Positions 10,486-52,861 of a stretch of DNA of 64,000 nucleotides are shown here, one piece after another. Positions within the stretch are counted from its first letter, which is position 1. Each line of letters starts with the position of its first letter. This DNA is from Physcomitrium patens (lineage: Eukaryota; Streptophyta; Bryopsida; Funariales; Funariaceae): NCBI RefSeq assembly GCF_000002425.4, contig NC_037262.1, positions 5,488,623 to 5,552,622 on the forward strand, in the 5' to 3' direction. Under the pieces are notes generated by a model. It was given only the letters and a program-made list of their open reading frames with translations, was not told the origin of the DNA and did no database searches. Both the position numbers and the translations under genes were made by a program.

Positions 10486-10697
10486 GATTGATAAGAATAT
10501 AATTACAGTATTAGAACTTTGTCTTCTCTTAATTGAAAGTAGAGTACCTATTTTTTTTGATAAGACATAAGTATATTAGAAGTTGTAGATTACCCTCTTT
10601 TAAACTAATTTTTTTCTTAGTATCTTCTTTGTTTTCAAGTCTTCTTTTCTACTTATCTTGAAAAATATTAAACATTTATTTTTTAAATATTATTATA
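10486..10697 (+). promoter_or_regulatory. CV1-B leader with priming site
   Basis: GATTGATAAGAAT directly after the LTR is complementary, allowing wobble, to the predicted RNA start near 10306. A decayed hairpin module follows (about 10580-10610, TAGAAGTTGTAGATTACC). Confidence 0.55.
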
Positions 10698-19280: not shown

Positions 19281-20794
19281 TGTGGTATTATGTGAAGTCT
19301 TGTTTGAGAATGCACTAAGTACTTGATTATGGAAGATAAAAAAAATTGCAACAAAAATCTTAAGAATTCTAATAGAATCATATATAAATTGTTTTTAAAG
19401 CTTAACATTTATAATCAAATATTCATCAAATCCAATTAAATTTTTAAATAAATTATAAAAAAAATATAAAAAATAATTCTAAATAAATCCTAATTAAATC
19501 TTAATCAAATCAAAGATAAATCTTATATAAATTATAATAAAATATTATATAAATTTTATTCAAATCCTATATAAATCCTAATCAAATCCTTAAAAAATTC
19601 TAATAAAATCTTAGAAAAATCCTAAATAAATCCTAATTAAATCCTAGACTAATTTTAAATAAATTCTAATAAAATTTTAGATAAATCTTAAAAAAATCCT
19701 AATCAAATTTTAAAAAAATCTTAGAAAAATTCTAATTAAATTCTATAAAAATTCTAATAAAATCTTAAACAAATCATAATCAAATCCTAAACAAATCTTT
19801 AAAAAATTCTAATCAAATCCTTAAAAAATCCTAATCAAATCCTACAAAAATCTTAAATAAATCCTAATCAAATCTTAGATAAATCTTTAAAAAATCTTAA
19901 TCAAATCTTAAAAAATCCTATACAAATTCTAATTATATTCTAAAAAAACTTCAATTAAATCCTAAAAAAATCATAATCAAATCCTAAAAAAATTCTAAAC
20001 AAATCCTAAATCTTAAATAAATTCTTAATAAATCCTATAATTAATCGAAACCTCCATAATTAACAATCAAATCATTGATTTTAATTCAATTTTTTTATAT
20101 CTTTCAATAATTGAGCTAAAAATAAGCATAAATATTTTTAAGAAGATCAAACTTACCAAATAGAATATAAATCCTAAAATCCGCTCAAGTATTAGCTAGC
20201 CTCCTTTTCTAATCTTAATGCCAATCTTTTTAATCCAAAATCTCTTAATTCTATCATTAAATATCTCACAAAATTTATATATATGTTGGAAATCAGTCTA
20301 CTATCTACATATGCATATTTCACCTTAATTCAATTAATAGATTGCTAAAGATCTTAAAATTCCTCACTGATCTTCAAAATTCTATTTTTAAGACCTCAAT
20401 TTGTTTAATTTTTAATAACCTTCAATATAACTATTTGATCATGCTCGAATTTACAATAAGAAATAAAAACAACTATTATTATAAATCCACATAATTTTAT
20501 CTATAGATCTATAAAGAAATTTATAAAATTCTCTCAAATATAAACTCTTTTTTTTATTTTACAAAATCAAATTTACCAAAACAACCTTCACTTTGCAAAG
20601 CTCTCATAAAGTCATTACAAATTAAAATTTTTCAAAATCCATGCTTGAAGAAATCCTATGAAGTCTTCTCTCAAATTCCATTCTTTAATTTGTAAAAGAA
20701 CCTTAGAATTGTTGTAAGTGCATGGTTTTTAAGAACTTCTATAATATTATATTTTCTTCATTCTTTTACTTATTAGTTTTATTATATCATGACA
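19281..20794 (-). mobile_element. N4: 1.5-kb N-family insertion with internal minisatellite
   Basis: Plus-strand left end TGTGGTATTATGTG, right end ATATCATGACA; both read TGTSRTRTTA-like inward. Flanked by ACGG (19277-19280) and ATGG (20795-20798), the latter a CpG transition of the former; CV2-D shows the uninterrupted site (GAACGGATGAA). The left end matches the inverted right end of N5. The left half is filled with a degenerate AAATCCTAATC array (19370-20040). Confidence 0.85.
19370..20040. repeat. Degenerate AAATCCTAATC minisatellite
   Basis: About 670 bp of imperfect repeats of roughly 10-12 bp, variants of AAATCCTAATC and AAATCCTAAA. A reverse-orientation counterpart (ATTAGGATTTTTTGGG type) sits near the corresponding end of N7 (about 63330-63700), so the array belongs to an N subfamily. 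Confidence 0.75.
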
Positions 20795-23629: not shown

Positions 23630-23926
23630 TGTTAGGGACATAGTCCTTAGAACCTTCTAGAGACAAGTTTCTAGAACCTTCTACAAGCAAGTCTCTGGAA
23701 CCTTCTAGAAGCTTCTTAGTTGGTAGAAGTTGCTTGAGAAGCTTCCTAAATAGGAGTATATATTGGAATCGAGGCTGAAGAGTTCTTCAGTCTCGACAAT
23801 ACATCTCTTGAAGCTCTAGCTCACCTCTCTAGTGTTGTTCTTGTATTCATCTGATTAATCTAGTTCTTACTAGTTCTTCTTGAACTTCTTGTTAGATCTC
23901 GAGTCTATATTTCTGTGTCCGTGACA
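23630..23926 (+). repeat. 5' LTR of CV2-D
   Basis: TGTTAGGGACATAG ... GTCCGTGACA. Short repeated GAACCTTCTAGA blocks (three copies) lie in the first 100 bp, perhaps a transcription-factor array. TATA box at 23757-23764. Confidence 0.93.
23757..23799 (+). promoter_or_regulatory. CV2-D TATA box, start-site palindrome and self-primer
   Basis: TATATATT (23757-23764) is followed by an inverted repeat TCGAGGCTGAA / TTCAGTCTCGA (23769-23779 and 23786-23796) with a 6-nt loop. The predicted RNA start, 32 nt after the TATA box begins, is the A of AGTCTCGACAA (23789-23799), which is complementary, with one G-U pair, to the site at 23929-23939. Confidence 0.7.
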
Positions 23927-23939
23927 GTTTGTTGAGACT
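23927..23939 (+). promoter_or_regulatory. CV2-D self-priming site
   Basis: GT + TTGTTGAGACT immediately inside the 5' LTR. The 11-mer pairs with the predicted RNA 5' end at 23789-23799. An iMet-type 9-mer TATCAGAGC lies further down at 23954-23962. Confidence 0.65.
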
Positions 23940-24018
23940 TCACTGACCTCAGATATCAGAGCTAGTTTCTTCCTCGTTAGAGTGTGGATTACTCCTCTGC
24001 TTGGAAGTGTACTAGCAT

Positions 24019-24156
24019 TTTAGAGGTTGCGGATTACCCTCCTCTAAACTGATACTTCTTTTGTTACAATATTGGAGTCTTATTCTTCTTGGAAAGAGTG
24101 GATTATCCCTTTTCTTGAAGCTCTTAAGGCATTTTAGAGGATGTGGAGTATCCTCT
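24019..24156 (+). promoter_or_regulatory. CV2-D leader hairpin modules
   Basis: Hairpin 1: TTTAGAGG / CCTCTAAA (24019-24048) with a loop containing GCGGATTACC. Hairpin 2: AGAGGA / TCCTCT (24136-24156) with a 9-nt loop. Each is preceded by a single-stranded-looking GTGGATTACTCC or GTGGATTATCCC, so the leader is a repeat of two modules. Confidence 0.65.
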
Positions 24157-24206
24157 TCTAAACTAATATTGTCTTCTTGTACAATCATTTCTGTCCTTCT
24201 CTTAGA

Positions 24207-26820
24207 ATGGCCGGAGGCCAAGACATTAGTATGACAGAAAGTTCAGAGTCCAAGTTGGATGCTATTATGAATGTCCTCGCTACATTGTCGTATTGTAACA
24301 CGAGTATACTGTGAAAATATAAAGGAAGAGGACTTTTATTAATGTTCAGTTACCTCGAATATTGGGAGCAACAACCAATTCCAATGCAAATACTGAGAGG
24401 CTAGGTTCAGTCACCCCGTTACAGTCAGCCGGGGCATACTGAAATGCTCCGTTCGATTCCAATAACGGGAGGCAGTAGGAAGGAAAAGGACCAATTCATA
24501 CGACGTGTGAGCCTGGTTTGAAGAGCCAATTGGATCCAATTTCAAGAATCCAATCCGGGTCTTCTTACCCAATATGAGACCTGAATTGGTCGAGCAATCC
24601 AATGCAGTCTAATTACGGGAAAATCCAGGTCTTACTACGAGCCTCAATCAATCTCACGCGAAGGACCAATTTGATCCAATTACGGGAACATCCGGGTCTT
24701 ACTACTGGACTTTTAGCTAATATGAGACCTGAATTGGTCGGGCGACTCAATGTGGTCCCGATTACGGGGTTTCGATTCTGTTTCAGGTAGTCATGTTCTC
24801 TGTGTCATTTCAGGGAACATTGTTTTCGGTAAAAGGATCTCTTAAAGGTAAAAACGGAGGAGAAAGCTCTGACGGTGAGAGCCAATTCTGGATCCAAGAT
24901 GGAAAGAGCCAATTCCGGATCCAAGATGGAAGATTGAAGAAATTCAGAGGCTAGGATTTGAAAGAGGAGAGAATTAGGGTTAAAAGAGAGGAAGGTTAAG
25001 AAATGAGGGATTTTTTCAGATCAGATTTTTGGATCGAAGAGCTAGCTTCAAGCTCTTTTCAAGGTCACTAGTTTGGTTTCATTAGGGTTTGTGAGGAGAG
25101 AGCAATCGCTACTCAAAGTTAGTGTTTATTTTGGTGTTACGGATTTTATATAAAACATTGATGGTTCGCATTCTCAATCGATTTGTGCAAGTCGTGTAGC
25201 ATCTATGGATCAAAATTTGGTATTGTCTGGATAGTTGGGTGTGCTAAGTGTATACAAAAATTTGTATTAATCTAACGATGCAATCAAGAGATATCTGGGT
25301 TTTAGTACAAAGGGTTGTCGGAGGTTGGCAGTCTAGGGTTGGATAGGGTTCTGTGATATCTGAAGATCTACTAGTTGGATCAACGTAATTTTTGGCTTAG
25401 TAATAGAAGATTTGGAGATCAAGCGGCTATTCAATTTTGAGCTGGAGTTAACGGTTGACAAAGGAGAAATCACTTCTGGAGTTTCTCCATCAAATTTTAA
25501 GGTTGCGGCCGAGTATCATCAGTGCGGTTTTTGGGCGTTTTCTTGCAATCTGTAAGTTGGATTGGGCTGAAATTTTTTGAGCATATAGAAGGCTTATACT
25601 GGTATTTGGATGCAAAATTTCACACTAAGTGGACGGTTGGATCAAAAGTTACAGCTTGTCAAAGCTCACTTGCTAGGGTTAGGGCTTATTAAGAAAAACA
25701 AAAACAACTTAATTGTAAAAGAAATAAAGCAATTGGAATATTGTATGGTTAAAATGACTATGAGGAGTGTTTTTAAATACTTGGAAATTGATATTTCAAT
25801 TATATTCTTCATACATGGATAAAATCTATTAGGATTCTTTGTTATTTGTAAAAACAACTATACTTTCCACAACCAGATACCCAGTGTATTCCCAAAGAAG
25901 ACAACACGTAATACGACAACGTTATCACAAAGAATTGCAGAGATTGAAGGAGTTGTGGCAAGGCTTCATAATGATGGAGCATCTGGGATGGCACAACCTA
26001 GGTTGCACCAGCTTCAAACTTCTGCACTTTGAGAAGCAACTTTACCTCAGGTTCGACAAGCATCGCTGGTTCTACAACATAAGGAGCCCCGAGTTAGCCT
26101 TCCGGACAAGTTCGATGGTAAGCGTTCCAAGTTTCAAGGATTCGTTAACCAAATCAGGTTGATAATAGTTTTACAGCTCGAACGCTATCTAACGGAGGAG
26201 TCACGTGTTGGGCTTGTTGGAACCTTACTTACAGGGAAAGCTCTATCATAGTTTGCTCCTTTGTTTGAGAAACAATCGTCCATACTAAACAACTTTGAAA
26301 CCTTTTTGGAGGCGTTTGCAAAAGCATTTGGTGAACACGACAAGGTTCAATGGGCTACAATAAAGATCCGGTCACTACGACAAGGGATGCACTCTACATC
26401 AGTCTATGCATCGAACTTCAGGCAATTAGCATGCGACATCAATTGGGACGAAGAAGTGTTGATGAATCAATTCTATTGGGATTTAAGGGACAATGTGAAG
26501 GATTTGCTCTTAACTCTTTCTGATCCGCAAATGCTCAACGAAGCTATTAGCCAAGCTATGAAGTGCGATAATCGCCTATTCCAACGCTGCCAAGACCAAC
26601 GTTCAAGACAACATACGGTTCGCCACGCCCCAACTATGTCAACAAGCAACTTGAATTCACATTAAGAGGTAGAAGACATGTAAATTGATGCGGTACGTGT
26701 CAAATCCCTTACTCTAGAAGAAAAAAAATAGCATATAGAGAAAGGTCTATGCTTGTATTACGGTGAAGAAGGCCACAAAGTTGAAAACTGCCCCAAGAAG
26801 CAAAATCGAGCTCGGTAGAA
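24207..26820 (+). pseudogene. CV2-D gag (interrupted by N5)
   Basis: ATG at 24207 (MAGGQDISMTESSESKLDA) opens the gag region. N5 sits inside (24286-25918) and gag resumes with LSQRIAEIEGVVARL. The gag core follows (FLEAFAKAFGEHDKVQW, then YASNFRQLACDINWDEE near 26405-26460), and a zinc-knuckle region near 26745-26795. Homologous to CV1 gag (47222-48225) but clearly divergent, which defines a second family. Confidence 0.85.
24286..25918 (+). mobile_element. N5: 1.63-kb N-family insertion in CV2-D gag
   Basis: Starts TGTCGTATTGTAACACG and ends CACGTAATACGACA, giving terminal inverted repeats TGTCGTATT. Flanks ACAT (24282-24285) and ACGT (25919-25922). GC-richest and probably youngest N copy. 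The interior holds repeated blocks such as TTACGGGAA and GAGACCTGAATTGGTCG, and GAGCCAATTCYGGATCCAAG twice (near 24875 and 24905). No convincing coding sequence. Confidence 0.87.
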
Positions 26821-26829
26821 TATGTCGCT

Positions 26830-28410
26830 ATCTAGGTTCGATTTTGTTATCACTTATTGACCTGGAAAGCAGCAAGGACTATCTGATGCCTTATCGAGGA
26901 GATCGTATCTTGTACCAAAGGTTGGAGAAGTAGTGTTTGATCAACAATATACGACGTTGTTGAAGCCAGAGCAATTTTGGCTTTGCACTACTATTATGCC
27001 AATTGATGCTGACTTCCTGAATCAGGTACATGCCGTGACCATTGAAGATTCAGTAGCCATTGATATCAAGCAGTGTGCCAATGACAACAAGTTCAAGGTG
27101 GAGGGAGATCTTTTATACTTTGAGGAGCGGTTGTATATTCCAAAAGGACCAGCACGACTCTGAGTTCTTCAATCTTGCCACGATTTTTTAGCTGCGAGAC
27201 ATTTTAGATTCAACAAGACCTTGGAGCTTATTTCTCGAGATTTTTGGTGGCCCCAAATGTAGAACGATGTGAAAGATTTTGTCCTCTCCTGTGACATCTG
27301 TTCAAGATCCAAGAATTCTCGGCATCGCCCTTATGGACTCTTACAGCCATTGTCGATTCCATGTCGACCATGGTCTTCAGTTTCTATGGACTTCATCATG
27401 GATCTGCCATCATCGAACTCATTTGACAACATCTTTGTCATGGTAGATCGGCTTACAAAGATGGCGTACTTTGTCCCTTGCAAGAAGACATTATCCAGTG
27501 AAGTCATAGCAAGGCTCTTTCTCGATAATGTGTATCGATATCATGGACTACGAGATGATATCGTATCACATCGAAGAACCTAGTTCGTATCAAAGTTTTG
27601 GAGATCTCTCTTTGAGATACTGAAGGTAGATATCAAGCTTTCTTCGACTTTTCATCATCAAACTGACGGCCAAACGGAACGGATGAACCAAGTCTTGAAA
27701 TAATACTTACGATGCAGCATCAACTATCAGCAAGACAATTGGACCACATATCTGCCACTAGCCGAGTTTGCATATAACAACATCTTCTATGCCTCGACTC
27801 AATACACACTATTCTTTTTCAACTATGAGTATCATCCAAAACTTGATTTATTGAGTCCGTCAATAAATAACAATCCAGCAGCTGAAGGTTTTGCGAAACA
27901 ACTATCAGAGCTTCAAAATACGTTGAAGCTTCAATTACAATCCGCTCAAGAATCCTACAAGGCGTCTGTAGATAGATTTCGGAATCAAGCACCTACTTTC
28001 AAAATTGGAGATAAAGTATGGCTTCTTTGATGGAATATCAAGACCAAGCAACCATGTGATAAGTTGGACTATCGAAGATTGGGACCATTTATCATCCAGA
28101 AGCAAATCAATCCAGTGGCGTACCGTCTGGAATTACCGGCTTCTATGAAGGTACATCCAGTCTTTCATGTTTCTCTATTGGAGCCTTATCGAGAGTCGTC
28201 TTTTCCTGGAAGAGTGCAATGTCCGCTACCTAGTATTGAAATCAAGAACCACAAGGAATACGAGGTTGAAAAGGTGTTGGATTCATGGCGAAGGTGGGGC
28301 AAGTTGGAGTATCTTATTCATTAGTGCGGCTACGACATTAATGAGTAAACGTGGGAGCGAGCTGAAAATCTCACCAATGTGCTGCAAAAGGTACAGGAGT
28401 TTCATCAACA
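26830..28410 (+). pseudogene. CV2-D integrase and chromodomain
   Basis: Begins with the RNase H/integrase linker (MSLSRFDFVITY ... GLSDALSRRSYL). Then come integrase zinc-binding CDICSRSK (near 27291), core SMDFIMDLPSSNSFDNIFVM, the conserved HGLRDDI region, and the C-terminal [20 protein letters not shown]. The chromodomain follows ([14 protein letters not shown], then LEYLIH). Few breaks remain. Confidence 0.88.
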
Positions 28411-28575
28411 ACATCCTCATAATCCTAAGCCGGTTCGATGATAGCTTCCTTCTAAAGCTTGCTCACCCAAGAATATAAGAAAGGAGGAGAGCACCACCAA
28501 AATTCGCAATTAATGTAGTTATTTTCTCTAAGATAAAGTAGAATTTTTTCAGTAGCCATAGTTTGGTCTTCTGAT

Positions 28576-28929
28576 ATGGATAGCCAAGAGATAGATACTA
28601 TGCCAGTCAGATTATCTCAACCGACTAGCTCACGAAGGCGACCCTGAGATGAAGAACCGCCCACACCACGATGACGACGGAGGATACCGAGTAACCGATC
28701 ACTAGTGATTGTATTTGAGTTCAAGCTTGCTTATGATGGTCAGCCAGAAGGCGTGTTTGTGGGACAATTTCACAATGAGGACACGAAAGTTCATACTTGG
28801 TCAGAAGTCGAAGGAGTGGGCCACTACCATTGGCTTCAAGGATTGCTGAACCACTTGCCTCGTGAACAACAATTGGAGTTCATAGCAGACGTTATGCGAC
28901 AGATCTTCATTTTCTTGCATTGGTACTGA
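28576..28929 (+). pseudogene. CV2-D ORF3, unknown product
   Basis: Starts MDSQEIDTMPVRLSQPTSSR, then an arginine-rich stretch, then a hydrophobic/aromatic C-terminal part with HYHWLQGLLNHLPREQ. CV1-I has the same order at 51846-52268: an RLSQP start region, a basic stretch, and HYRWLRGPINHL. About 118 codons. No family recognised. Lies between chromodomain and polypurine tract, where most chromoviruses have no gene. Confidence 0.65.
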
Positions 28930-28965
28930 TTAACAACAACATTGCTTCTCAGAGACCTCGAAGCT

Positions 28966-28979
28966 AAAGGAGGGGGTGA
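28966..28979 (+). promoter_or_regulatory. CV2-D polypurine tract
   Basis: AAAGGAGGGGGTGA directly before the 3' LTR, the plus-strand primer position. Confidence 0.85.
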
Positions 28980-29276
28980 TGTTAGGGACATAGTCCTTAG
29001 AACCTTCTAGAGACAAGTTTCTAGAACCTTCTAGAAGCAAGTCTCTGGAACCTTCTAGAAGCTTCTTAGTTGATAGAAGTTGTTTGAGAAGCTTCCTAAA
29101 TAGGAGTATATATTGGAATCGAGGCTGAAGAGTTCTTCAGTCTCGACAACACATCTCTTGGAGCTCTAACTCACCTCTCTAGTGTTGTTCTTATATTCAT
29201 CTGATTAATCTAGTTCTTGCCAGTTCTTCTTGAACTTCTTGTTAGATCTCGAGTCTGTATTTCTGTGTCCATGACA
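28980..29276 (+). repeat. 3' LTR of CV2-D
   Basis: 297 bp, same length as the 5' LTR; about 11 differences by hand count. TATA, palindrome and predicted RNA start (about 29139) are conserved. Confidence 0.93.
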
Positions 29277-46458: not shown

Positions 46459-47010
46459 TGTCACAGCCATAATCATGTAAGCTAATAATTACATATAGAA
46501 ATAGGTAGAAGTAAGTAAAAGTAGATAAAAGTAAGTTAATTCTATAATATTTAATGTGGAAGCTTCCTAAAAACTTCTTAGACGCTGCTTTGACTTCATA
46601 AGTGTCTTTAATTGACTTTTTGGATTAGAAACGTGGTCAACAAGTTGGCCATGTGCCACACATGTTGTTAGCTTGAAGATCAAGCTAACTATGTGGCCCA
46701 CACGTAGAAAAACTTGCCTTGTAAGTCAAGGCATGTGTCCTACAAAGTCAACACATATTGGAGGTCCTATAGAACATCGCCATGTAGCCCCTACTTAGAT
46801 AGTATATATAGAGACAAGAGTGAAGGCTTCTTCACTCTTGTCAACTTCTTTCTTGCTTCTAGTCTAGGTTCAAGAGTCTTTAGTTTCTTGTCTTGTGGCA
46901 ATAGCCATTCCAGTTTCCTTTTAATATACATACTTGTTTATATTTTGACTTATTATATCGAGATAGCCTTTTTGTGTATATTTTCCCTCATCGAGTCTTT
47001 GTCCTTGACA
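46459..47010 (+). repeat. 5' LTR of CV1-I
   Basis: TGTCACAGCCATAATCATG ... TTTGTCCTTGACA, 552 bp. Contains a TATATATA box at 46803-46810 and GAGTCTTTAGTTTC/GCCATTCCAG blocks shared by all family LTRs. Confidence 0.95.
46803..46844 (+). promoter_or_regulatory. CV1-I TATA box, start-site palindrome and self-primer
   Basis: TATATATA (46803-46810), then a perfect 12-bp inverted repeat GACAAGAGTGAA / TTCACTCTTGTC (46813-46824, 46831-46842) with a 6-nt loop. The predicted RNA start is the A of ACTCTTGTCAA (46834-46844), 31 nt after the TATA box begins. That 11-mer pairs with 47013-47023, with one G-U pair. The left arm therefore resembles the priming site itself. Confidence 0.75.
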
Positions 47011-47023
47011 GATTGATAAGAGT
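47011..47023 (+). promoter_or_regulatory. CV1-I self-priming site
   Basis: GA + TTGATAAGAGT directly inside the 5' LTR, complementary to the predicted first 11 nt of the RNA. The same 2-nt spacing occurs in CV2-D. Known precedent: Tf1 of fission yeast primes reverse transcription with the 5' end of its own RNA. Confidence 0.7.
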
Positions 47024-47099
47024 ACACTTACAATATCAGAGCTTTTTTTTTCTTGAGTAAGAGTGGATTACCCCTTTCTCTTGACAAGACATAAGCGTA

Positions 47100-47128
47100 T
47101 TAGAAGTTTGCGGATTACCCACTTCTAA
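47100..47128 (+). promoter_or_regulatory. CV1-I leader hairpin
   Basis: TTAGAAGT / ACTTCTAA stem with loop TTGCGGATTACCC; a second GTGGATTACCCC lies upstream at 47063. Stem bases differ from CV2-D (TTAGAGG/CCTCTAA) in a compensating way while the loop is conserved. Confidence 0.65.
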
Positions 47129-47221
47129 ACTGATATTGTTCTTAGTATCTTCTTTATTATCAAGCCTTTCTTTTCTTTTGTCTTGAGCAGTATCAAACAA
47201 ATTTTTCTTCTTAGTATCATT

Positions 47222-48225
47222 ATGGCAGAGCTTGTTGAAATGAAGAGTGCAATGGCACAAATGCAAGAGCAAATGAGGGAGTTAATGCTTGCGATGTATC
47301 AACTCAATTCACCAACACAGGAAAGAATAAGAATAGCAGAAAGTGGGGATATAGAGATGATCGGAGCTGCTTCAACATCTACAAAAAATCACGTTCTTTC
47401 TCCAATTGTACAACACCCTGTAAGCACTAGATAACCAAGAATTACCTTACCCGAGAAATTTGATGGTACGAGATCAAAGTTTCGAGGGTTCATCAATCAA
47501 GTACAATTGGCAATTGAACTTCAACCACAAAGCTATCCAACTCCAGGATCACAAGTCAGGTTTATTGGCACTCTACTTTCTGGTTCTGCATTATCGTGAT
47601 TTTCGTCTTTTCTTGAACAACAAAATCCAATATTGGACAATTTGGAAGCTTTTTGGCGGAGTTTCGATCTATGTATGGTGAACACGATGCAACTCGTGTT
47701 ACAACAAATAAGATCCGAATTCTGCGACAAAGAAATCGCTCAGTAACAGTGTATGCTTCACAATTTCGACAACTTGCAATTGACATCAAGTGGGATGATG
47801 CTGCACTCATCAGTCAATTTCTTTATGGATTGCAATACGAAGTAAAGAAATTGATGCTCAACTTACCTGATCCTCAAATTTTGAGTCAAGCAATCGATTT
47901 TGTGGTAAAATGTGATAATCGACTTTTCGAATTTCGATCCGAGAATCATTCACGAGAACCTCAATGTTATTACTCAATGGCAACATCAACATCTTTGCCA
48001 AACATACATTCGGAAGTAAAAAACATGCAAATTGACGCAGTACGTTTTAAACCCCTAACTGAGCAAGAAAAGATTCGTCGTCGTCAAGAAGGATTATGTT
48101 TATATTGCGGAGAACCTAAGCACACTGCTCAACATTGTCCAAAGAAACGACGCAACTATAAAATGAGGGGTACGACGGTCAAAAAAAACAACATGTCGAA
48201 AAACAGATTCGTCCAACTACAATAG
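47222..48225 (+). pseudogene. CV1-I gag
   Basis: ATG at 47222 opens MAELVEMKSAMAQMQEQMRE, a probable coiled coil. The gag core follows (YASQFRQLAIDIKWDDAALI near 47755-47810) and a CCHC zinc knuckle, LYCGEPKHTAQHC (about 48100-48140), then a lysine/arginine-rich tail. It would form the particle shell and bind RNA. Very few breaks. Confidence 0.88.
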
Positions 48226-48230
48226 GGACC

Positions 48231-51200
48231 ATGCAGCTAGAACCTTGTACAATTCCTAATGAAGGTCCTATCCTCTCCTCAGAACCCTCTCCTTGTTTTA
48301 TAATAGACTTATATTTAGGACCTAAGAATTACAAAGCCTCTGCTTTATTACATTCGGGAGCCTCAGCATGTTTTTTAGATGAACAATTTGTTAAAAGTCG
48401 TAAAATACCTTTTGTACAGAAACCTAAACTAGTACATGTAGAAGTCATAGATGGTCGTCCCTTGTCTTTTGGAGATGTCACTCATGAAACTCATCCTATA
48501 AAAGTAACAATAGACGGTCATGATAGCTACATAGCTTTTAACATAATTAAATCCCCGTCCAATCCAATTATTTTAGGTTTATCCTGGCTAAAAAAATATA
48601 ACCCTCGAATAGATTGGAATTCGCGTAAACTTGACTTTTTCCAGAGCGTTATTAATAGTTCTACCAACCAAGTAAAAAATTATAAGTCTAGTATAGTAAA
48701 ACCCGTACTGATAGGTGCAAAAGCATTTATACACACAGCAAAAGAAGGATCAACTTTTGCTATTTATACTGCACCTATTTCTAAAAATGTAAAGACTTCA
48801 AGTAGCATTCCAAGTCAATATCAGGAGTATCAAGACGTTTTTGAGAAAAAGAATGCAGATATTCTTCTTGAGCATCGCCCATATGATTGTTCAATCGACC
48901 TCAAGGAAGGAACTCAGCCACCATTTGGACCAATTTACAGTTTATCGCAAGATGAGATGGCTGAACTCAAGACATATATTGACAAGAATTTAGCGAAGAA
49001 TTTCATACACCATTCAAAATCTCCAGCAGGAGCTCCAATTCTATTCGTAAAGAAAAAAGATGGATCTTTACGAATGTGTGTTGATTATCGAGGACTCAAC
49101 AAGATCAAAATCAAGAACAGGTATCCATTACCTTTGATATCAGGATTCCTTGACCAGTTGAATCAAGCTAAGATCTATACAAAAATAGATCTAAGAGGAG
49201 CATATAATCTAGTACGGATCAAAGAAGGAGATGAATGGAAGACTGCGTTTCGAACCAGGTATGAACATTTCGAATATAATGTCATGCCCTTTGGACTCAC
49301 GAATGCACCAGCTACTTTTCAACATCTCATGAATGATGTATTTCGTGAATTCTTAGACAATTTTGTCGTATACTATCTAGACGATATCCTGATCTATTCT
49401 AAGAACGTCGAAGAACATGAAATACATGTTCGTCAAGTATTACAAAAACTTAGAGATGCAGGATTGTACGCCAAGATGGAAAAGTGTGTATTTCACACTA
49501 CTCAAGTTGAATTTTTAGGATACATCATTTCAAATGATGGTCTCATGATGGATTCTAAGAAAGTCCAAACAATCATGGATTGGAAGATTCCAAGGACAGT
49601 AAGAGATGTCCAATGTTTCTTCGGATTTGCCAATTACTATCGGATCTTCATCAAAGATTTTTCACGAGTTGCAGCTCCACTTACACGCTTGACTAGTAAA
49701 GATAAATTCCAATGGAATCAAGAAGCGGAAGCAACATTTGAAGCCTTGAAGACATCGTTTGTCTTTACACCAGTCTTATATCGTGTTGACTTTTCCAAGG
49801 CATTTTTTATGGAAACAGATGCATCAGATTTTGCCTTGGGTGCAGTTTTATCACAAATGGGAACAGATGACAAACTTCATCCGATAGCTTTTCATTCAAG
49901 AAAATTCTCAGCAGCCGAGATCAATTATGAGATCCACGATAAAGAACTTCTTGCGATCGTGGATTCCTTTCAAGAATGGTGTCATTATCTAGAAGGCGCT
50001 TCTAGTCCAGTCACTGTGTATACAGATCACAAGAACCTCGAGTATTTTATGTCAGCACGCGTATTGAATCGTCGTCAAGCTCGTTGGAGTATGTCTTTGT
50101 CAAGATTCGAGTTCATTATCACTTATCAGCCAGAAAAATAACAAGGTTTGTCCGATGCCCTATCTAGATGTTCTTATTTTACATCAAAAGAAGGAGATGC
50201 AGCTTTTGAGCAACAAAGAACGGTCCTCTTGAAACCAGAGCAATTTCATCTCCGAGCAATGAAATCAACATTGATTGTTGATTCAACTTTTCTCAAGCAA
50301 ATCCAGTCTAGTATGCCCTCAGACCCTCTTGTTCATGATATCGAGAATAATTCTTCCAAGTCTCATGATCCTTCTAAGTTCTTGTTCAAGAATAATCTAT
50401 TATATTTTGAAGGACGCCTATATGTTCCAGAAGGAGAAGCACGTTTACGTGTTCTTCAAGCACGTTTACGTGTTCTTCAAGCACATTTACGTGTTCTTCA
50501 AGCACGTCATGACTTTCCAGCAGTAGGACACTTAAGATATAATAAGACTTTGGAACTCATATCAAGAGATTTTTGGTGGCCACAAATGTGGAAGTCAGTC
50601 AAAGACTTTGTACAATCATGTGATATTTGTTCAAGATCAAAAATTCCTCGTCATCGACCTTACGGACTTCTTCAGCCATTACCAATACCAGAACAACCAT
50701 GGTCTTCTGTTTCTATGGATTTCATCACAGATCTTCTAAGCTCAAGATCTTATGATTCTATATTTGTGATAGTAGATCGTTTCACCAAGATGGCACATTT
50801 TGTGCCATGTACAAAATCTATCACAGGTGAAGAAACAACTAAGCTTTTCATTGATAATATCTATCGCTATCATGGATTACCTAAAGATATCATATTGGAT
50901 AGGGGAACTCAATTTGTGTCAAGATTCTGGAGGACTCTTTTCAAGATTTTAAAAGTGGACATAAAGCTATCTTCGGCTTTCCATCCTCAAACTGATGGAC
51001 AAACAGAGCGCGTAAACTAAGTCTTGGAGCAATATTTAAGGTGTACTATCAACTACCAAAAAGATGATTGGACAACCCTTCTGCCATTGGCAGAGTTTGC
51101 TTGTAATAATACGGTACATTCTTCTACGCAACAAACACCTTTCTTTGCCAATTATGGCTATCATCCACGACTTGATACTTTTGATTTTTCAAAAGTTGAT

Positions 51201-51730
51201 AATCCTGCAGCAGAAGATATGGCAAATCAGTTGTCAGAGTTACATGCAATAATGAAGGCGCAATTGAAGGAAGCTCAAGAACGACAAAAGATCTATATCG
51301 TAAGGAGCAACCACAATTCAACGTGGGTGATAAGGTATGACTACTTCGTCGCAATATCAAGACTACTCGACCTTGTGACAAGTTGGACTATCGTAGGCTT
51401 GGCCCCTTTTCTATTTCCGAACAGATCAACCCAGTTGCATATCGGTTACATCTACCGGAGTCAATGAAGATCCATCCTGTATTCCACGTGTCTCTTCTTG
51501 AACCATATAAGACAGTGGATATACAAGGAAGAAGACAAATGCCACCGCCTCCTATAGAAATAGATAATAATGAAGAATTTGAGGTGGAAGAGATATTAGA
51601 CTTAAGGCGGCACCAAAATAAGCTGGAATATCTTGTTCATTGGCGCGGGTATGATATTAGTGAACGCACATGGGAGCCATCCAGGAATCTAGTAAATGCA
51701 TCAGTTAAAGTCAAAGTTTTTCATCAATGA
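48231..51730 (+). pseudogene. CV1-I pol: protease, RT, RNase H, integrase, chromodomain
   Basis: Begins six bases after the gag region ends. Domains in order: aspartic protease (about 48330-48600); RT (about 48990-49600) with KKDGSLRMCVDYRGLN, VMPFGLTNAPATFQHLMN and YYLDDILIYSK; RNase H (about 49800-50140) with ETDASDFALGAVL, HDKELLAIV and TDHKNLEYF; integrase (about 50150-51450) with CDICSRSK, FVIVDRFTKMAHFVPC and HPQTDGQTERVN; chromodomain (about 51560-51730) with NNEEFEVEEILDLRRHQN then HWRGYDISERTWEP. DYRGLN and LRGAYNLVRI are typical of fungal/Tcn1-type chromoviruses. A few breaks only. Confidence 0.93.
50440..50502 (+). repeat. Three tandem 21-bp units in CV1-I integrase
   Basis: CACGTTTACGTGTTCTTCAAG is repeated three times, encoding repeated RLRVLQA in frame just before the integrase zinc-binding domain. 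CV2-D and the other CV1 copies with this region readable appear to have a single unit. Confidence 0.9.
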
Positions 51731-52309: not shown

Positions 52310-52861
52310 TGTCACGGCCATAATCATGTAAGCTAATAATTACATATAGAAATAGGTAGAAGTAAATAAAATTAGATAAAAGTAAGTTAATTCTATAATA
52401 TTTAATGTGGAAGCTTCTTAGAAACTTCCTAGATGCTGCTTTGACTTCATAAGTGTCTTTAATTGACTTTTTGGATTAGAAACGTGGTCAACAAGTTGGC
52501 CATGTGCCACACATGTTGTTAGCTTGAAGATCAAGCTAACTATGTGGCCCACACGTAGAAAAACTTGCCTTGTAAGTCAAGGCATGTGTCCTACAAAGTC
52601 AACACATATTGGAGGTCTTATAGAATGTCGCCATGTAGCCCCTAGTTAGATAGTATATATAGAGACAAGAGTGAAGGCTTCTTCACTCTTGTCAACTCCT
52701 TTCTTGCTTCTAGTCTAGGTTCAAGAGTCTTTAGTTTCTTGTCTTATGGCAATAGCCATTCCAGTTTCCTTTTAATATACATATTTGTTTATATTTTGAC
52801 TTATTATATCGAGATAGCCTTTTTGTGTATATTTTCCCTCATCGAGTCTTTGTCCTTGACA
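52310..52861 (+). repeat. 3' LTR of CV1-I
   Basis: 552 bp, equal in length to the 5' LTR, about 14 differences. TATA, palindrome and predicted start (about 52684) conserved. Confidence 0.95.

What the first reader, a model, noticed from the sequence alone, without database searches (positions are those of the whole stretch)
46803..47023. Self-priming geometry conserved with co-varying sequence in two chromovirus families
In CV1-I, the predicted RNA 5' end ACTCTTGTCAA (31 nt from the TATA box start) pairs over 11 nt with TTGATAAGAGT, 2 nt inside the LTR. In CV2-D a different 11-mer, AGTCTCGACAA, at the same distance from its TATA box, pairs with TTGTTGAGACT at the same 2-nt offset. Each duplex contains one G-U pair at the same position. 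Changed sequence with kept pairing is hard to explain unless the pairing matters. Tf1/sushi elements prime reverse transcription with their own RNA 5' end. I know of no description of this for elements in plant-like DNA.
Basis: partly seen in the sequence, partly recalled or inferred. Interest (0 to 1): 0.88.

Follow-up and report, generated by a model that had tools for sequence, protein, structure and literature searches.

The report
Self-primed retrotransposons with primer hairpin
Two related jumping-gene families in what looks like a moss genome appear to start copying themselves with the tip of their own RNA instead of a borrowed cell tRNA, a mechanism already predicted for this group of elements in mosses; what is added here is a matching hairpin at the start of the RNA and a tRNA-like second site.

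Summary
The pairing is real. In CV1-I the predicted RNA 5' end (46834-46844) pairs over 11 nt with 47013-47023; in CV2-D 23789-23799 pairs with 23929-23939. Each site starts 2 nt behind the LTR end (fixed by the 3' LTR and 5-bp target duplications) and is the only 11/11 complement of its primer on the window's + strand. In genome-order listings the site is the perfect complement in 88 of 100 CV1 and 78 of 100 CV2-type places, so the 'same-position G-U' is a C-to-T change in these copies, not a conserved feature. All three primer differences between the families are compensated in the site.

Best explanation: Tf1-type self-priming in Tcn1-like chromoviruses. It is not new for plants: Neumann et al. 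2019 predicted it for most moss/club-moss Tcn1 elements.

Additional: (1) a U3 arm between TATA box and start site forms a 12-13 bp hairpin with the primer and co-varies with it; it could mask the primer copy in the RNA's 3' LTR; (2) both leaders carry TATCAGAGC, and a third family (281 matches) has the full 12-nt tRNA-iMet complement 10 nt behind a self-primer site. RNA 5' ends were not tested.

The parts
46459..47010 (+). CV1-I 5' LTR (TG...CA)
   Evidence: matches 52310-52861 at 97.5%; 5-bp TSD CCCTA
46803..46810 (+). TATA box of CV1-I
   Evidence: TATATATA, starts 31 nt before primer
46813..46825 (+). U3 arm complementary to primer region (hairpin left arm)
   Evidence: 13-bp stem with 46830-46842, -19.8 kcal/mol; covariation
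46834..46844 (+). predicted RNA 5' end / self-primer ACTCTTGTCAA
47013..47023 (+). primer binding site TTGATAAGAGT (majority of copies TTGACAAGAGT)
   Evidence: only 11/11 complement in window + strand; 88 of 100 listed places perfect
47034..47042 (+). TATCAGAGC, 9-nt core of a tRNA-iMet primer site, 10 nt behind the self-primer site
   Evidence: tRNA 3' end seen in this genome
47030..47039 (+). leader stem, left arm ACAATATCAG
   Evidence: pairs 47130-47139 in the MFE fold
47130..47139 (+). leader stem, right arm CTGATATTGT
47653..48225 (+). CV1-I gag piece
   Evidence: PF03732 E 6e-10
48231..50141 (+). CV1-I protease / reverse transcriptase / RNase H piece
   Evidence: PF00078, PF17917, PF08284
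50148..51020 (+). CV1-I integrase piece
   Evidence: PF17921, PF00665
51341..51727 (+). CV1-I SH3_Tf2-1 and chromodomain piece
   Evidence: PF24626 E 3e-19, PF00385 E 9e-14
52310..52861 (+). CV1-I 3' LTR; primer copy starts at 52685, hairpin 52664-52693
23630..23926 (+). CV2-D 5' LTR
   Evidence: matches 28980-29276 at 96.3%; TSD CATAA
23769..23780 (+). CV2-D U3 arm (hairpin left arm)
   Evidence: 12-bp stem with 23785-23796, -18.9 kcal/mol
23789..23799 (+). CV2-D predicted RNA 5' end / self-primer AGTCTCGACAA
23929..23939 (+). CV2-D primer binding site TTGTTGAGACT (majority of copies TTGTCGAGACT)
   Evidence: 78 of 100 listed CV2-type places perfect
23954..23962 (+). CV2-D TATCAGAGC core, 14 nt behind the self-primer site
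28980..29276 (+). CV2-D 3' LTR; primer copy starts at 29139

Best explanation
CV1-I and CV2-D are copies of two Tcn1-like (Tf1/sushi-type) chromovirus families that prime reverse transcription with the first 11 nt of their own RNA. Transcription starts 31-32 nt after the start of the TATA box. The 11-nt 5' end pairs with the site 2 nt behind the 5' LTR. By analogy with Tf1, RNase H cuts between nt 11 and 12, and the freed primer is extended into U5 and R. Shown here: anatomy, 11-nt length, position, retention in near-identical copies, compensation between families. Inferred: the RNA 5' end, cleavage and extension, and the clade. I further infer that the U3 arm masks the second copy of the primer, in the RNA's 3' LTR, by a hairpin, so that the binding site takes the 5' copy.
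For: Position and uniqueness. In both window copies the duplex ends exactly at nt 11. Perfect site in 88 of 100 CV1 and 78 of 100 CV2-type places in genome order, and in 14 of 14 fetched copies of a third family. All 11 positions form standard pairs in 29 of 34 CV1 and 22 of 32 CV2 copies compared, and in 25 of 25 and 19 of 22 of the closest ones. The 11-bp helix dominates the predicted fold in 5 of the 6 leaders folded. Chromodomain and SH3_Tf2-1 domain in CV1; SH3_Tf2-1 in CV2-D. Tf1: first 11 bases pair with the site, RNase H cuts between 11 and 12; fungal Tcn1 was proposed to self-prime (PMC7175516, passages). Plant Tcn1 clade predicted self-primed (PMC6317226, passages).
Against: No RNA 5' end was mapped. 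Where the primer changed within the CV2 group (A8 to G), the site did not follow: 4 of 4 fetched copies with leader keep T, a G-U; one copy has the opposite, a changed site (C) with the old primer, which breaks the pair (L087). The primer ACTCTTGCCAA with its matching site TTGGCAAGAGT occurs in 0 of the 45 matches of a pattern that would have listed it. So compensation is shown only between the families. The two flanking duplexes of the Tf1 'pretzel' are not clearly better than shuffles: reached by 13 and 57 of 500 in CV1, 499 and 237 of 500 in CV2. The window's own CV2 copy forms the helix with probability only about 0.13. A tRNA-iMet-like site lies close by. No tree was made.
Confidence: 0.85

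Rival explanations
1. tRNA-iMet primes at TATCAGAGC / TGGTATCAGAGC, and the 11-nt pairing serves something else.
For: Both window leaders carry the 9-nt core; a third family (281 genome matches) has the full 12-nt complement of the tRNA 3' end; the genomic tRNA-Met(cat) ends GCTCTGATA, to which CCA is added (CCA addition recalled). tRNA-Met is the commonest primer type among plant elements, 39% (PMC6317226, passage).
Against: The site lies 23-27 nt inside the LTR end, so cDNA would not end at the LTR (inference). CV1 and CV2 lack the TGG that pairs with CCA. In CV1 the core is paired in a predicted leader stem.
Confidence: 0.06
2. The primer/site pairing is a real RNA structure but works in dimerisation, packaging or translation, not priming.
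For: No priming was observed; the leaders fold into further stems.
Against: 11-nt length and LTR +2 position are those of a primer site, and I found no other primer site abutting the LTR.
Confidence: 0.07
3. The U3/R hairpin is the selected feature (promoter palindrome or RNA 3' end signal) and the binding site resembles one arm by chance or descent.
For: 12-13 bp stem; covariation score 0.300 against 0.170 shuffled, 0 of 500.
Against: It does not explain a unique 11/11 complement at LTR end +2 in both families.
Confidence: 0.02

Closest known systems
Tf1/Tf2 of Schizosaccharomyces pombe and the Tf1/sushi group
   Same: 11-nt RNA 5' end complementary to a site beside the 5' LTR (PMC7175516, passages); chromodomain; SH3_Tf2-1 domain
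   Different: flanking 'pretzel' duplexes not supported above shuffles; tRNA-iMet-like core present; U3/R hairpin (Tf1 LTRs were not examined for it)
Tcn1 clade of moss and club-moss chromoviruses (Neumann et al. 2019; Novikova et al. 2010)
   Same: chromodomain elements; self-priming predicted for the majority of members (PMC6317226, passages)
   Different: for the club-moss SM-Tcn1 the 2010 paper found evidence for neither tRNA nor self-priming (PMC2864245, passages); clade placement by tree not made here
RLG1 of Physcomitrium patens
   Same: most abundant chromodomain gypsy element of that genome, 5092 complete copies (PMC7466625, passages); CV1 also has thousands of matches
   Different: identity inferred from copy number and genome size only; no RLG1 sequence was compared

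Membership tests
Tf1/sushi self-primed elements | RNA 5' end complementary to a site directly behind the 5' LTR | tested here: met
   11 of 11, LTR end +2, both families and a third; the 5' end itself is predicted
Tf1/sushi self-primed elements | 'Pretzel': two further duplexes between site-adjacent and LTR sequence | tested here: inconclusive
   shuffles reaching the observed energy: CV1 13 and 57 of 500, CV2 499 and 237 of 500
Tf1/sushi self-primed elements | RNase H cleavage after nt 11 and extension of that RNA | not testable with these tools
   needs cDNA or RNA ends
Chromoviruses | chromodomain after the integrase | tested here: met
   CV1: PF00385 E 9e-14 in 51341-51727; none in the 7 of 13 plus-strand CV2-D pieces scanned
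Tcn1 clade | groups with Tcn1/Tf1/sushi in an RT-RH-INT tree | not tested
   no reference sequences of these clades at hand
tRNA-primed plant chromoviruses | tRNA-complementary site abutting the 5' LTR | tested here: not met
   the abutting sequence is the primer complement; the iMet-like core lies 23-27 nt in; other tRNAs were not compared

The most novel reading that the evidence does not exclude
The element solves the two-copies problem of self-priming: its primer sequence occurs at both RNA ends, and a co-evolving U3 arm, present only at the 3' copy, locks that copy into a hairpin (-19 to -24 kcal/mol) stronger than the primer/site duplex (-12.5 to -16.2), leaving only the 5' copy free. 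The tandem self-primer and tRNA-iMet sites of the third family record a change between the two priming modes in this lineage.
Probability: 0.25. Interest if true: 0.68.

Novelty: new member of a known kind. Interest (0 to 1): 0.45.

Why it matters
Self-priming is demonstrated for Tf1 of fission yeast and, in what I read, only predicted in plants. Families with thousands of matches, one of them the most highly expressed element of its genome if CV1 is RLG1, give exact coordinates for a direct test. The U3/R hairpin offers a checkable answer to how the binding site chooses between two identical primer copies. The family with both sites bears on how elements move between tRNA priming and self-priming.

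Tried and rejected
A third primer type: two patterns for leaders with TATCAGAGC but other spacing or other primer sites showed no new type among their 45 and 19 matches; families without that core were not reached. Within-family covariation at primer position 8: not seen in the binding site. For the U3 arm it is confounded: many listed CV1 LTRs with C8 have G opposite, but arm-G is also common in old copies with T8. Selection for pairing after insertion: no sign. A copying mechanism, in which the site is rewritten from the primer at each round and so tracks it automatically: not supported, since 4 of 4 changed primers keep the old site. De novo search of twenty 10-kb samples listed repeat pairs; I recognised CV1- and CV2-type LTRs and did not examine the other pairs for self-priming. 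Equal spacing from the TATA box (31 and 32 nt) is what any promoter would give.

Full report
What is there. The window lies in a 470-Mb assembly (G000) whose size and content suggest Physcomitrium patens (recalled, not shown by name). CV1-I is an LTR element with LTRs 46459-47010 and 52310-52861 and TSD CCCTA; CV2-D has LTRs 23630-23926 and 28980-29276 and TSD CATAA. CV1-I pieces match gag, protease, RT, RNase H, integrase, SH3_Tf2-1 and chromodomain models. Of 13 plus-strand CV2-D pieces of 70 aa or more I scanned 7: one matches gag, one integrase below its cut-off (E 0.0098) and one SH3_Tf2-1; no RT or chromodomain model was hit, so this copy may be defective.

The pairing. ACTCTTGTCAA (46834-46844) pairs with TTGATAAGAGT (47013-47023), and AGTCTCGACAA (23789-23799) with TTGTTGAGACT (23929-23939). 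Both sites start 2 nt behind TGACA, where 5' and 3' LTR contexts diverge. Each primer has exactly one 11/11 complement (G-U allowed) on the window's + strand. The duplex stops at nt 11 in both window copies; nt 12 could pair in 3 of 34 CV1 and 0 of 32 CV2 copies compared. Eleven is the length reported for Tf1 (PMC7175516, passages).

Copies. After dropping duplicate loci and rows not alignable over both parts, 34 CV1 and 32 CV2 copies remained. All 11 positions are standard pairs in 29 of 34 and 22 of 32, all Watson-Crick in 23 and 12; among the closest copies (96% and 94% identity or more) standard in 25 of 25 and 19 of 22. These were mostly chosen as best matches to the window, so I also took listings in genome order. 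CV1 sites: 2589 matches, of the 100 listed 88 perfect, 6 with T at position 5, 8 with A at position 10, 2 of these with both. CV2-type sites: 1484 matches, of the 100 listed (13 of them third-family places, by comparison) 78 perfect, 7 with T at position 5, 13 with CA in place of CG, 2 with other single changes. These patterns admit only transitions at named positions, so other decay is not counted.

Covariation. Between the families the primer differs at positions 2, 6 and 8, and the majority site differs at exactly the three partners, each compensated. That is one evolutionary comparison, not many. Within the CV2 group four fetched copies have primer AGTCTCGGCAA and all keep the T (G-U) in the site; one (L087) has a changed site with the old primer. 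In CV1, C8 with the matching site occurs in none of the 45 matches, all of which have one partner changed without the other. So neither lineage-level tracking nor automatic rewriting is seen below family level.

A third partner. Between TATA box and start site lies a U3 arm complementary to the primer: 46813-46825 with 46830-46842 (13 bp, -19.8 kcal/mol) and 23769-23780 with 23785-23796 (12 bp, -18.9). At least 11 of 13 pairs are standard in 54 of 59 CV1 and 32 of 36 CV2-type LTRs examined. On 51 distinct 32-nt rows, 88.5% of cells pair against 80.6% shuffled (0 of 500), 8 of 13 pairs have a change on both sides (8 of 500 shuffles reach that), the covariation score is 0.300 against 0.170 (0 of 500), and sliding by 1-3 columns gives 0.053-0.145. 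RNAalifold on its own predicts 8 of the 13 pairs with a small covariation term, -0.57 of -3.74 kcal/mol. Relatedness inflates the shuffle test: most of the signal is the CV1/CV2 split. There all three primer differences are compensated in the arm too; two further arm differences give one G-U and one mismatch at the stem's outer end. A further lineage (L086) has G8 with a C in the arm and a perfect 12-bp stem of -24.0. A G-U at one pair in 33 of 36 CV2-type LTRs favours RNA pairing over a DNA palindrome. The arm is not in the predicted RNA 5' end but is in its 3' LTR; there it would bury the second copy of the primer. This role is inference.

The tRNA-like site. TATCAGAGC lies 10 (CV1) and 14 (CV2) nt behind the primer site; the pattern TGACA, 12-22 nt, TATCAGAGCT has 3502 genome matches against 1 for the reversed pattern, and in nearly all of those listed the TGACA is that of the CV1 primer site. 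Diverged copies have lost the core, for instance at L047 and in the window element with leader at 10486. A third family has 281 matches with the complete TGGTATCAGAGC; 14 of 14 fetched copies examined have a perfect primer/site pair and this 12-mer 10 nt behind it. The genome's tRNA-Met(cat) gene ends GCTCTGATA, so with CCA the 12-mer is its exact complement. Because it lies well inside the LTR end, priming there should not give integrable ends; I read it as a relic or as part of the leader stem (47030-47039 with 47130-47139). Chance is not excluded for the TGG extension.

Folding. Of six leaders folded, the 11-bp helix has pair probabilities near 1 (lower at its ends) in CV1-I, L044, L031, L040 and L034 and about 0.13 in CV2-D itself. 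The extra Tf1 'pretzel' duplexes (PMC10085805, passages) are not supported beyond shuffles, except weakly one in CV1 (13 of 500).

Prior knowledge. PMC6317226 (passages): the majority of plant Tcn1-clade elements (moss, club-moss) lack tRNA sites and are predicted self-primed; self-primers were called by blastn as regions complementary to at least 10 bp starting 0-5 bp behind the 5' LTR. PMC2864245 (passages): SM-Tcn1 showed neither. PMC3601003 (passages) mentions 5' hairpin priming in chromoviruses and promoter hairpins in general. I saw no description of a U3 arm complementary to a self-primer, or of tandem self and tRNA sites, in the listings or the passages read; two searches worded closer to the arm failed on their terms, the library covers open-licence papers only, and the one original Tf1 paper I looked up is not held.

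Verdict.

Noticed in passing
L094-L097, L100-L109; 281 genome matches: A third family with a perfect self-primer site and, 10 nt further, the full 12-nt complement of the tRNA-iMet 3' end.
   Followed up: yes
46813-46842 and 23768-23797: Inverted repeat across the U3/R junction that includes the first 8-9 nt of the predicted RNA and co-varies between families.
   Followed up: partly
47044-47130 and 23970-24172: Leader repeats of small hairpins around GGATTACCC-like loops (two units in CV1, about four in CV2, by eye), possibly a packaging signal.
   Followed up: no
19376-19947: Tandem array with 11-bp spacing, registered copies at 60-79% identity.
   Followed up: no
L034:3496-3916: A CV2-type LTR lies directly against the U5 and leader of a CV1-type element, either an insertion or a recombinant.
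   Followed up: no
23927-28979: CV2-D: gag match only at 26252-26662 and no RT model hit in the 7 of 13 pieces scanned; possibly a defective or rearranged copy.
   Followed up: no
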